DNA from: Synechococcus sp. PCC 7502
Lineage (GTDB): Bacteria > Cyanobacteriota > Cyanobacteriia > Pseudanabaenales > Pseudanabaenaceae
Reading direction: 5' to 3'
NCBI RefSeq assembly: GCF_000317085.1
Contig: NC_019702.1
Location: 2,138,394-2,202,393 of the forward strand
Length of the DNA stretch: 64,000 nt
Made by a program: the position numbers and the translations under genes. Shown here piece by piece: positions 38,694 to 58,524 of this stretch (its first letter is position 1; each line of letters begins with the position of its first letter). A model generated the notes under the pieces. It saw nothing but the letters and a program-made list of their open reading frames with translations. It was not told the DNA's origin and did no database searches.

Positions 38694-39563
38694 GAGTAGC
38701 AATTCTTTTTAGCATCAAGCGAATAAAGCAAAGATTGAGTTTAGCTGTAGGATTAACGAGAGTTCTCTCAAAGTTCTTAACTAAGATTTTGCATCTTTCA
38801 ACCCAAGTACCCACCTTGTCGGCACAACTACAAACCCAGACAGACCTTTTTCTGCCTGCTTTTGCTTTGATACCTTAGGAGAAATTTCAAACCTAATCTT
38901 AGTCATAATCTCAGGATAAACCTTCTGTAAATCAGTCGTCAATTTTTCGATATGATAACCACTATCCAGCAATATCGTAGTTAGCGTAATGTCATCTGGC
39001 TTCGATTTGAAGTAATCAATGTTAATCGTTAACATTTCAATCAGTCCTTGGTCATCTGATACATTTGCTCTTGTTAAATAGGTAAAGAAAGGAAATCCCA
39101 GAGTGTCAACGGCTAAATGTCTTTTGATCCCGTTAGTTGCTTTGTAGGAGCAGAAGCCCTTGGATTCTATACTTGCATTACAAGTATTTTTCACTGCTTG
39201 TGAGTCAATGATGATTAAAGTTGTCCATTTTGATTTTTTTTGACTGTTCACGGGCTGTTGCATGTAAAGCTTCCATAATCGCAGTAAATGTACCTGTATC
39301 TTTCCACTCCTTGTAGTATCGATACACTGTAGAGAATGGTGGTAAGTCTCGGGGCATATCTCGCCAATTACAACCGTTTTTAAGTTGGTAGAGTATGCCG
39401 TCTAAAATTTGTCTTTTTGTCCAAGTTGGTGGTCTAGTTTGCTTTTTCTTTGGGAGCAATGGTTCTATAATTTCCCATTCTTTATCTGTTAGGCTACTTG
39501 AGTATGGATTTAGCATTTTCTAAGCATCATACATCTTGCTCATAATAGATATGAAACAGGCTC
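38674..39563. mobile_element. IS5-family insertion sequence, inactivated
   Basis: About 890 bases bounded by 17-base perfect inverted repeats GAGCCTGTTTCATATCT (38674-38690 and, inverted, 39547-39563). It contains a broken IS5-type transposase on the minus strand. A TA flanks both ends if two more bases are counted on each side, consistent with a small target duplication but not decisive. Inserted at the 5' end of the membrane-protein gene. Confidence 0.85.
38683..39516 (-). pseudogene. IS5-family transposase, frameshifted and lacking catalytic Glu region
   Basis: First frame (39516-39205): the DUF4096-type start SSLTDKEWEIIEPLLP and a block GILYQLKNGCNWRDMP. At a run of eight A (39240-39247 on this strand) the frame shifts by one to continue SKWTTLIIIDSQAVKN, first Asp, then TILLDSGY, second Asp. 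After PTRWV the expected VERT segment with the catalytic Glu is missing, and homology resumes in the first frame as WVERCKILVKNFERTLVNP, ending with a stop at 38683 inside the inverted repeat. The A8 run could be a slippage site, but the second lesion looks like a deletion, so the element cannot move itself. Confidence 0.82.
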
Positions 39564-39647: not shown

Positions 39648-39745
39648 GACGTTGCAGAGTTTAGTATGAATCAAAGATTTCTTAAAGGCTAGGAATAATA
39701 TCCAGCCTAAACTCTAATTTCTTTTATACATAGATATGCAACGCC
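39648..39745. repeat. MITE, GGCGTTGCA family, copy 1
   Basis: 98 bases with ends GACGTTGCA and TGCAACGCC. Shares the interior CAAAGATTTCTTAAAGGCTA, then TCCAGC-TAAACTCTAATTTCT with the copy at 56970-57080. Non-coding. Its right end forms the last codons of a chimeric reading frame that extends to its right. No matching flanking duplication here. Confidence 0.8.
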
Positions 39746-39958: not shown

Positions 39959-40729
39959 GGTAGTGATCAAGAGGGCATGATGCAGAACTTAGAGTGAATT
40001 TCAGAATTGTAGTGATGGATAAATATCCAAATAGCACCGATATGATTTTCTAATTTCTTAGAAAAAGAAAGAGTTTTTCTAACAAGGCGAGAAATTCTTT
40101 GCCTTAAAGTACAATTGAACCTTTCAATATGATTAGTCTGTCCAGACTCTTTGCCCACAGCCTTATGGCGTTTTTTAGGTAAAATACAGCTATAAGCTTG
40201 CCAGAAGTCAGTATAACAAACAGCACATTGTCGATAAACGGTTGGTAAAGATTGCCATAACCCCAAGGCTGCTTCTTGGTTTCGACTACCAACAAACACT
40301 CCAACAATTTCTCTAGTATTTCGGTCAATTGCTAACCAAATCCATACCTTAAATGACCATAGTTCATCGCACTCAATGGTCAGGCGTGCTTTTTTTTAGG
40401 GATTACCTTAACTTGCGACTCTACAGTTACAGACTTACCATTTATATAACTCTGTAACCACTGTAATGACACCTTGGCAACATGCTTAATCCCTCGCATG
40501 GATATACGTTCTAGCAGCAGATTATCGACTAATTTAATTGTGGATTCAGCTATTGGCTGGTTTTTGGGATTAATCACAAATTGACGATTACACTTTTTAC
40601 ATTTGTAGTTTTGTTTTTTGTGACGGGTTATGCCATTCTTAACTATCTGGTCACTTTCACAGTAAGGACATTTTACTTCTATTTTGTTTTACCCCTTTTT
40701 TTATCTATCATGCCCTCTTGATCACTACC
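39959..40729. mobile_element. IS1-family-like insertion sequence
   Basis: 771 bases, the size of IS1, bounded by 23-base perfect inverted repeats beginning GGTAGTGATCAAGAGGGCAT. Encodes an InsA/InsB' type transposase. The bases outside the two ends do not form an 8-9 base direct repeat. A solitary copy of the end lies at 55277. Confidence 0.9.
39967..40676 (-). CDS. IS1-type transposase (InsA + frameshifted InsB')
   Basis: First part (to 40380): zinc ribbon KCPYC...YKCKKC, then a helix-turn-helix (RGIKHVAKVSLQWLQSYI). A run AAAAAAAAG just before the InsA stop would allow a -1 shift into the second frame, which continues ARLTIECDELWSFKVWIWLAIDR, then CYTDFWQAY and NHIERFNCTLRQR, giving the DDE residues of IS1 transposases, and ends at 39967. 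No ATG, GTG or TTG precedes the zinc ribbon in frame: the codon before KCPYC is GTA, with a TAA at 40691. So the start may have been lost or is non-standard. Confidence 0.78.
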
Positions 40730-51841: not shown

Positions 51842-52530
<689 letters not shown>

Positions 52531-56310: not shown

Positions 56311-56682
56311 ATGAAAACCGTAACTTCTTATTTCAAACAGGTAGCCCTTGTAGTTTTAGGCTTATTAGTTGCCTTTAATTTCTTTACTGCAAACGTTGCT
56401 GCTGAAACCTATACTGTCAAAATGGGTTCTGATAAAGGTGCATTAGTATTTGAGCCTAAGGATATTATTATTAAGCCCGGTGACACCATTAAATGGATCA
56501 ACAACAAGGCATATCCCCATAATATTATCGTTCAAGGTGAAGCTGAGTTATCTCATAAAAAACTACTAGTAAAACCTGCCGCCGAAGTTGAAAGCACTTT
56601 TACCGCCCCCGGTGAATATAGTTACTACTGTACTCCCCATCGTGGTGCTGGCATGGTTGGCAAGGTAACTGTTCAAGGCTAA
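56311..56682 (+). CDS. petE: Plastocyanin
   Basis: A 123-residue precursor of the lumenal copper protein that carries electrons from cytochrome f to photosystem I. Signal peptide to about residue 31 (NVAA), mature domain of about 92 residues. Copper ligands are His70, Cys107, His110 and Met115 (YPHN and YYCTPHRGAGM). Downstream of psbV on the same strand and followed by a terminator. Confidence 0.97.
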   Translation: MKTVTSYFKQVALVVLGLLVAFNFFTANVAAETYTVKMGSDKGALVFEPKDIIIKPGDTIKWINNKAYPHNIIVQGEAELSHKKLLVKPAAEVESTFTAPGEYSYYCTPHRGAGMVGKVTVQG

Positions 56683-56705: not shown

Positions 56706-56733
56706 GGGGGAGCTTTATCGCTTCCCTTTTTTA
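56706..56733 (+). terminator. Intrinsic terminator of petE
   Basis: GGGGGAGC-TTTATC-GCTTCCC followed by TTTTTTA, about 25 bases after the petE stop. Confidence 0.75.
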
Positions 56734-56835
56734 TGCTTATTTTCAATATGGGAATTCAAAAGAAATAGTCTTCCCATTTTAGAACTGCACCCTAATATTA
56801 GAATCATTAATAATCTGCAAATCCCTAAAGAATAA

Positions 56836-56956
56836 GACTTACGCACTCAAATTAGTAAAGTTCTGACAAAACGGAGTTTCAGGGCGTAGCTCTCAATTGG
56901 GGCTTTGCCCCAAACCTATTATAAAATCTGGGTTTTTCTTTTATCCTGCGTAAGTC
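56836..56956 (+). repeat. MITE, GACTTACGCA family, copy 1
   Basis: 121 bases with perfect ten-base ends GACTTACGCA and TGCGTAAGTC. The central palindrome TTGGGGCTTTGCCCCAA could fold. A nine-base direct repeat CTAAAGAAT flanks it (56825-56833 and 56957-56965), with two extra bases on the left. No coding frame. A second copy, inverted, is at 52232. Confidence 0.85.
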
Positions 56957-56969
56957 CTAAAGAATTAAT

Positions 56970-57080
56970 GGCGTTGCATAATGAAGTATGAGCCAAAGAT
57001 TTCTTAAAGGCTATGAATAGTATCCAGCATAAACTCTAATTTCTAGAGTTTGTTCATTTCATACCTAAATCTGCAACGCC
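56970..57080. repeat. MITE, GGCGTTGCA family, copy 2
   Basis: 111 bases with nine-base ends GGCGTTGCA and TGCAACGCC, exactly flanked by the eight-base target duplication GAATTAAT (56962-56969 and 57081-57088). Shares its interior with the copy at 39648. Non-coding, so it must be moved by a transposase encoded elsewhere. Confidence 0.9.
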
Positions 57081-57098
57081 GAATTAATGAATGAAGAA

Positions 57099-57833
57099 TT
57101 AAAGCATTTTTTCCAAAAACTGTTTTGCCCGATCGCACTGGGGTTGAGAAAAGAAATCACTGGGAGCCGCATCTTCAGCTAGTTTTCCTCCATCTAAAAA
57201 GAAAATTCGATCAGCTACTTCCCGCGCAAAATTCATTTCATGGGTGACGATCGCCATAGTAATACCCGTAGAAGTTAACGATTTCATTACATCTAATACT
57301 TCCTTTACCATCTCTGGATCGAGAGCAGAGGTAGGCTCATCAAATAAAATCACCTCTGGTTCCATTGCCAAAGAGCGAGCGATCGCTACCCGTTGTTTTT
57401 GTCCTCCCGATAATCTGGACGGGAAAACCTCCGCTTTTTCTTGGAGTCCAACTTTTGCTAATAAGGCTTTACCTTTTTCATTTGCCTCTTCTTTGTCAAT
57501 TTTTTTAATCTTGATCGGAGCGTAGGTAATATTTTCTAAAACGGTTTTGTGAGGAAAAAGATGAAAATGCTGAAATACCATGCCGATATTTTGACGAATT
57601 TTAGCGACATCCTTAATCGCACTCAGATCAGTACCATTGAAATAAATCCTACCGCCCGTCGGTTTTTCCAAGAGATTCAAACATCTTAAGAATGTGGATT
57701 TCCCACAACCTGAAGGACCTATGATGGCAACAACTTCACCCTTATGAATATTTGTAGTTATCCCCTTAAGAACATGGAGCTTACCAAAGGATTTATTTAG
57801 TTCTTCTACTTGAATTATGCGATCGCCTGCCAT
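57099..57833 (-). CDS. Polar amino-acid ABC transporter ATPase (GlnQ/HisP type)
   Basis: A 244-residue ATPase. Walker [10 protein letters not shown] near residue 38, Q-loop [11 protein letters not shown], signature LSGGQKQR and Walker [15 protein letters not shown]. The ATG at 57833 is preferred because GGGAGAG precedes it; a longer reading from 57908 would overlap the permease gene. Last gene of the operon binding protein - permease - ATPase. Confidence 0.94.
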
Positions 57834-57864
57834 ATTTCTCTCCCAAAACTTACTCTTACCTAGC

Positions 57865-58524
57865 CTAGTCAATCCGCCGCATCCATTTCTCCAGAGACGA
57901 TGCCCCAAAGGTTAAGGTAATTACCAATACATAGTAAATAACCCCTGCAATCATTAATGGTTCAAAATAGATATACTTCTCAGCCCCTACAATCTGAGCA
58001 CTTCTAAGAATATCAACCGCCCCAATCGTTGAGACTAAAGCCGAATCCTTTAATAAAGCTATACTTTCATTTACCAGTGCGGGCAGAATATTTTTTAATG
58101 CTTGGGGCAGAATAATATCCCACATATACAGCAAGTACGGCACGCCCAAAGACATAGCGGCTTCCCTTTGTCCTTTATCAACCGCTAATATTCCACCTCT
58201 GATAGTTTCAGATACATAGGCACCAGAGTTAAGGGAGAAAGTAATTACCCCTGCTTGCAGCGCCGAAATGTTATAGCCCGTAAGCTGTGGTGTGGCAAAA
58301 TAAACCAAAGTCAGCATTAAAATCAAAGGTACGCCCCTAAATATAGAGGTGTATGCTTGGGCAAAGTAATCAAGGGGCTTAATCCCAGAAATTTTAAATA
58401 GGGATAAAACTACACCCCAAATAAACCCAAATAATGCTGATAGTAGGGTAAATTGAAAAGTTGTAGGAATTCCGTTAAGGATAAAAGGGATAGAACCCCA
58501 AACTTTAGAAAACTCTAAGTTCAT
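57865..58524 (-). CDS. Polar amino-acid ABC transporter permease
   Basis: A 219-residue HisM-type permease with about five helices. The EAA loop [36 protein letters not shown] near residues 125-160 contacts the ATPase. [16 protein letters not shown] is typical. Its ATG overlaps the binding-protein stop by four bases (ATGA). One permease gene only, so it probably works as a homodimer. Confidence 0.93.

What the first reader, a model, noticed from the sequence alone, without database searches (positions are those of the whole stretch)
56825..57088. Two MITE families inserted side by side, one with a clean 8-base duplication
The 56970-57080 element is bounded exactly by GAATTAAT, and the 56836-56956 element by CTAAAGAAT direct repeats; the duplications overlap, so one insertion followed the other into an adjacent site. 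Sister copies lie at 39648 and 52232. The pre-insertion sequence can be reconstructed. Autonomous partners are unknown.
Basis: seen in the sequence. Interest (0 to 1): 0.6.

Follow-up and report, generated by a model that had tools for sequence, protein, structure and literature searches.

The report
Two neighbouring MITEs, IS701- and IS1-type
In a cyanobacterium of the Pseudanabaena family, two different kinds of tiny gene-less jumping DNA landed almost on top of each other between two genes, and the larger mobile elements that most likely moved them can be named; this is an ordinary, well-explained case.

Summary
Both elements are real repeats with many copies in the genome. Element B (56970-57080, 111 bp) has an exact 8-bp target duplication, GAATTAAT. 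Element A should be drawn at 56833-56959 (127 bp). Its duplication is the 5-bp AAGAA (56828-56832 / 56960-56964). The 9-bp CTAAAGAAT is those 5 bp plus CTA, which is the element's own end on the right and chance on the left. The autonomous partners, called unknown, can be named. B shares its ends and 8-bp duplication with an intact 753-bp IS1-family element in a relative. A shares its terminal 13 bp and 5-bp duplication with a ~1.05-1.09-kb IS701-family element, of which two open copies lie in the same genome. A same-genus relative has the same gene neighbours without either element. The overlapping duplications do not tell which came first: both orders give exactly the sequence seen. New members of known kinds, low interest. 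One unexplained point: 8 of 11 full-length B copies, including five 100% identical ones, lack a duplication. In one, B replaces exactly 438 bp of a transposase gene, and four others abut truncated insertion sequences, suggesting adjacent deletion, as known for IS1.

The parts
56833..56959 (.). MITE A, 127 bp, non-coding, IS701-type ends (TAAGACTTACGCA ... TGCGTAAGTCCTA; the left end carries one G->A change against the consensus YAGGACTTACGCA)
56833..56845 (+). left terminal inverted repeat of A
56947..56959 (-). right terminal inverted repeat of A
56828..56832 (.). left 5-bp target duplication of A (AAGAA)
56960..56964 (.). right 5-bp target duplication of A (AAGAA), overlaps B's left duplication
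56970..57080 (.). MITE B, 111 bp, non-coding, IS1-type ends (first 23 nt identical to an IS1-family element in a Pseudanabaenaceae relative)
56970..56991 (+). left terminal inverted repeat of B
57059..57080 (-). right terminal inverted repeat of B
56962..56969 (.). left 8-bp target duplication of B (GAATTAAT)
57081..57088 (.). right 8-bp target duplication of B (GAATTAAT)
39648..39745 (.). sister copy of B, 98 bp, 13 bp shorter than full length, no target duplication
52232..52348 (.). diverged sister copy of A, no target duplication
56311..56682 (+). flanking gene, plastocyanin-like (petE; named by its sequence, not searched)
57099..57908 (-). flanking convergent gene, amino-acid-type ABC transporter ATPase (named by its sequence; listed start codon uncertain); its stop lies 10 bp beyond B's right duplication

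Best explanation
Two independent, non-autonomous MITEs inserted in succession into the convergent intergenic spacer between a plastocyanin-like gene and an ABC-transporter ATPase gene of a Pseudanabaenaceae cyanobacterium. A carries only the terminal recognition sequence of an IS701-family element and was probably moved in trans by its transposase, which duplicates 5 bp of target. B carries the ends of an IS1-family element and was probably moved in trans by its transposase, which duplicates 8 bp. The second arrival used a target that overlapped the duplication left by the first; which came first cannot be read from the sequence. Shown: copies, ends, duplication lengths, matching autonomous elements, and absence of both elements in a relative. 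Inferred: mobilisation in trans by those transposases.
For: Multi-copy in own genome. B: intact 753-bp IS1-family elements with one 235-aa reading frame and the same ends in relative G039, three copies with perfect 8-bp duplications AACTTTTC, CAAAATGG and CCAAAAGC; the window B's first 23 nt are 100% identical to the end of an IS1 in G046. The decayed own-genome copies carry the IS1 transposase domain (PF03400, NF033558). B copies elsewhere have exact 8-bp duplications: GGATTTCA on a P. galeata CCNP1313 plasmid (G023), AAAAATCA (G040), GACTGGCT in a genome of another family. A: 1.05-1.09-kb elements with TAGGACTTACGCA at both ends encode an IS701-family transposase (NF049921, 385 bits against a cut-off of 250); the G004 copy has a 5-bp duplication AGAGT in the same frame. 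Independent experiment: IS701-family ISDge5 makes 5-nt duplications (CACCA, TCTTC) with terminal repeat CTCAGGAGTTGCACCT, and IS1-family ISDge2 makes an 8-nt duplication (PMC8533066). Duplication statistics. Element-free spacer in the same-genus genome G001.
Against: MITE A shares only about 13 bp with the IS701 element, so descent from it is not shown. None of the five near-full-length IS701 copies in the own genome has a target duplication, so the 5-bp rule for this IS rests on one copy in a relative, on the MITE copies and on the literature. All own-genome IS1 copies with B's ends look decayed. The relative's spacer is too diverged to place the insertion point to the base.
Confidence: 0.93

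Rival explanations
1. A and B form one composite mobile unit that moves together.
For: They lie 10 bp apart.
Against: Every other copy found of A or B stands alone, each family has its own duplication length, and A alone or B alone occurs in other genomes.
Confidence: 0.01
2. The repeats are maintained as structured RNA or DNA elements (for example bidirectional terminators or attenuators between convergent genes) rather than being mere transposon relics.
For: Both fold far better than shuffled sequence on both strands (z -3.2 to -5.9) and they sit between two convergent gene ends.
Against: Inverted repeats fold by construction. No Rfam family matches. The only terminator-like site in the spacer lies outside both elements, at 56706-56727. 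The same-genus relative does without them.
Confidence: 0.05
3. MITE A is moved by a transposase other than the IS701-family one found here.
For: Only the outer 13 bp are shared, and A copies are older and more diverged than the IS701 copies.
Against: TAGGACTTACGCA stands at both ends of the IS701 elements, the 5-bp duplication agrees, and the own-genome search for AGGACTTACGCA shows no other transposon-sized pair with a different transposase.
Confidence: 0.12

Closest known systems
IS1 family (ISDge2 in Deinococcus geothermalis; cyanobacterial IS1-family elements)
   Same: GG-starting terminal repeats, 8-bp target duplication, zinc-ribbon plus DDE_Tnp_IS1 transposase in the matching autonomous element
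   Different: B has no gene; beyond about 23 bp at the ends its interior is not IS1-derived in any way detected here
IS701 family (ISDge5 in D. geothermalis)
   Same: CAGGA-type terminal repeat, variable 5-bp target duplication, IS701 transposase in the matching element
   Different: A has no gene and shares only about 13 bp with the autonomous element
Nezha MITE of cyanobacteria (Zhou, Tran and Xu 2008, known here only from a reference list)
   Same: Short non-autonomous inverted-repeat element in cyanobacteria
   Different: Its sequence and duplication length could not be compared: the paper is not in the library

Membership tests
MITE (both elements) | Short, no transposase gene, terminal inverted repeats | tested here: met
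   127 and 111 bp; inverted repeats of 13 and 22 nt; no open frame of 60 aa or more over them
MITE (both elements) | Many dispersed copies with target duplications | tested here: met
MITE (both elements) | Ends shared with an autonomous transposon | tested here: met
   IS701 for A, IS1 for B
MITE (both elements) | Moves when the partner transposase is supplied | not testable with these tools
   needs a transposition assay
IS1-derived MITE (B) | 8-bp target duplication | tested here: met
   window copy and 4 others exact; intact IS1 in G039 3 of 3. Eight of 11 own-genome full copies lack it (two have exactly 8 bp, one 7 bp)
IS1-derived MITE (B) | Ends match an IS1-family element encoding an IS1 transposase | tested here: met
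   23 of 23 nt with the G046 IS1; NF033558 and PF03400 hits in own-genome copies
IS701-derived MITE (A) | Ends match an IS701-family element | tested here: met
   13 of 13 nt at the right end, 10 contiguous of 13 at the left end of the window copy; NF049921 hit
IS701-derived MITE (A) | Same target duplication length as the partner | tested here: inconclusive
   A: 5 bp in 10 of 23 copies. The IS701 partner shows 5 bp in one copy (G004) and none in five own-genome copies; literature ISDge5 has 5 nt
IS701-derived MITE (A) | Interior descended from the IS by internal deletion | tested here: not met
   no interior similarity; so it is called 'moved by', not 'descended from'

The most novel reading that the evidence does not exclude
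MITE B, although only 111 bp and gene-less, acts as a deletion maker. Its recent insertions in this genome usually come with loss of adjacent DNA and without a target duplication: 8 of 11 full copies, 5 of 5 identical ones, one measured 438-bp loss, four more abutting truncated insertion sequences. The same may hold for the IS701 copies, which also all lack duplications.
Probability: 0.4. Interest if true: 0.4.

Novelty: new member of a known kind. Interest (0 to 1): 0.22.

Why it matters
It names the likely partners of two MITE families of Pseudanabaenaceae and gives their duplication lengths and exact ends, so copies elsewhere can be annotated. The lack of duplications around young B copies, with one measured 438-bp loss, hints that even gene-less miniature elements can drive adjacent deletions and so genome loss. 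That is documented for full insertion sequences (PMC11708052); no report for MITEs was seen in the few papers read here.

Tried and rejected
Reading A as a TA-target (IS630/Tc1-type) element: rejected, because the end opposite the TAG end is CAG in many copies and the flank statistics peak at 5 bp outside YAG/CTR. The 9-bp duplication of A: rejected (no 9-bp match in any of 23 copies at any frame tested). Ordering the two insertions: impossible from sequence. Explaining missing B duplications by recombination between copies: no left flank matches the right flank of another duplication-less copy (best hit 7 of 8 to the window copy, which is itself perfectly paired); loss of partner copies cannot be excluded. 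Placing the empty site to the base in G001: spacer too diverged. The Rfam search was empty. The only genome-contig scan gave one Pseudanabaena biceps copy. Literature searches for IS701- or IS1-derived MITEs in cyanobacteria gave no direct match.

Full report
OBSERVATION. The window (C3:2138394-2202393 of a 3.58-Mb genome) belongs to a cyanobacterium; the MITE-B family occurs in Pseudanabaena biceps O153 and on a P. galeata CCNP1313 plasmid, and the genomes searched as its family include the latter, so Pseudanabaenaceae is the likely family (inference). The spacer lies between a plastocyanin-like gene ending at 56682 and a convergent ABC-transporter ATPase gene ending at 57099 (both named from their translated sequence).

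COPIES. Element B has 11 full-length 111-bp copies in the genome, five of them 100% identical and three more within 1-2 differences of these; the window copy is the odd one (15-18 differences). Element A has about a dozen more diverged copies (71-82% to the window copy) and recurs in the same-genus genome G001 and in two other genera of the family (G005, G011).

BOUNDARIES AND DUPLICATIONS. B: GAATTAAT on both sides, exact. Over 16 copies from several genomes, 5 have an exact 8-bp duplication against 0.30 in shuffled flanks. A: scanning the frame over 23 copies, the duplication signal is strongest by far in the frame 3 bp outside GACTTACGCA, at 5 bp: 10 of 23 against 0.44 shuffled, p <= 0.0005; by eye a few further copies fit 6 bp or more. 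So A runs 56833-56959 and its duplication is AAGAA.

ORDER. Inserting A (5 bp) and B (8 bp) into CAAATCCCTAAAGAATTAATGAATGAAG gives exactly window 56818-57096 whichever goes first. The overlap shows succession but not order. In G001 (82-83% identical flanking genes) the spacer is short and has neither element.

PARTNERS. B: in relative G039 three copies of a 753-bp element with the ends GGCGTTGCATAATAAAGTATGAG / GGCGTTGCAGGATAAAGTATGA and a single 235-aa IS1-type frame each have a perfect 8-bp duplication. A 752-bp element in G046 is identical to the window B over its first 23 nt. In the own genome the IS1 copies with these ends are decayed: 725 bp with frame breaks, or split by an IS630 element. 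The protein pieces hit PF03400 and NF033558. A: five near-full-length elements in the own genome, four of about 1.05 kb and one of 1.93 kb enlarged by another transposase gene, have AGGACTTACGCA-type ends; two have an unbroken 338-aa frame, a clear IS701-family transposase (NF049921, 385 bits). In G004 a relative (87% protein identity) has the same ends and a 5-bp duplication AGAGT. Published transpositions agree: IS701-family ISDge5 gives 5-nt duplications with terminal repeat CTCAGGAGTTGCACCT, IS1-family ISDge2 gives 8 nt (PMC8533066).

HOW IT WORKS. Most likely both are passengers moved in trans by those transposases (inferred). The interiors show no descent from the partner elements. A regulatory or terminator role is possible but unsupported.

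AN UNEXPLAINED POINT. Eight of the 11 full B copies in this genome lack the duplication, among them all five identical ones, so decay is not the reason. In copy L040 the flanks are two parts of one transposase gene, and an intact copy in G001 has 438 bp more exactly at the B position. Four further copies abut truncated insertion sequences: L033 at an IS1, L035 and L038 at IS701 elements, L041 at another transposase. Adjacent deletion during transposition fits best: loss of duplications through adjacent deletions or recombination is documented for insertion sequences (PMC11708052), and IS1 deletion formation is a classical finding (Reif and Saedler 1975, cited in PMC2246112). Recombination between copies is not supported by the flanks but cannot be excluded.

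VERDICT. The finding is real and now explained: two MITEs, IS701-type and IS1-type, new members of known kinds.

Noticed in passing
L040 1501-1611 (own genome C3:2078902-2079012) against L267 1818-2255: A young MITE-B copy stands exactly in place of 438 bp of a transposase gene and has no target duplication.
   Followed up: partly
L070, L071, L072, L073, L083 (own genome): All five near-full-length IS701 copies lack a 5-bp target duplication, although the MITEs with the same ends often keep theirs.
   Followed up: partly
L036 / C3:1669316-1669414: A MITE-B copy has lost its first 14 bp right up to an apparent 8-bp duplication CTAATTTG.
   Followed up: no
L061 1082-2959 (C3:2694881-2696758): An IS1-family element interrupted by an IS630-family element.
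   Followed up: partly
L120 292-2263 (Pseudanabaena biceps O153): A 1972-bp IS1-type element with an 8-bp duplication GATTTTCA carries an unrelated transposase-like frame inside it.
   Followed up: no
L037 right flank and over 30 other places: A near-identical transposase element is present in more than 30 copies in this 3.58-Mb genome, including its small contig C1.
   Followed up: no
window 39205-39516 and 39967-40577: Remnants of two transposase genes (one IS1-like) flank the shortened MITE-B copy at 39648.
   Followed up: no
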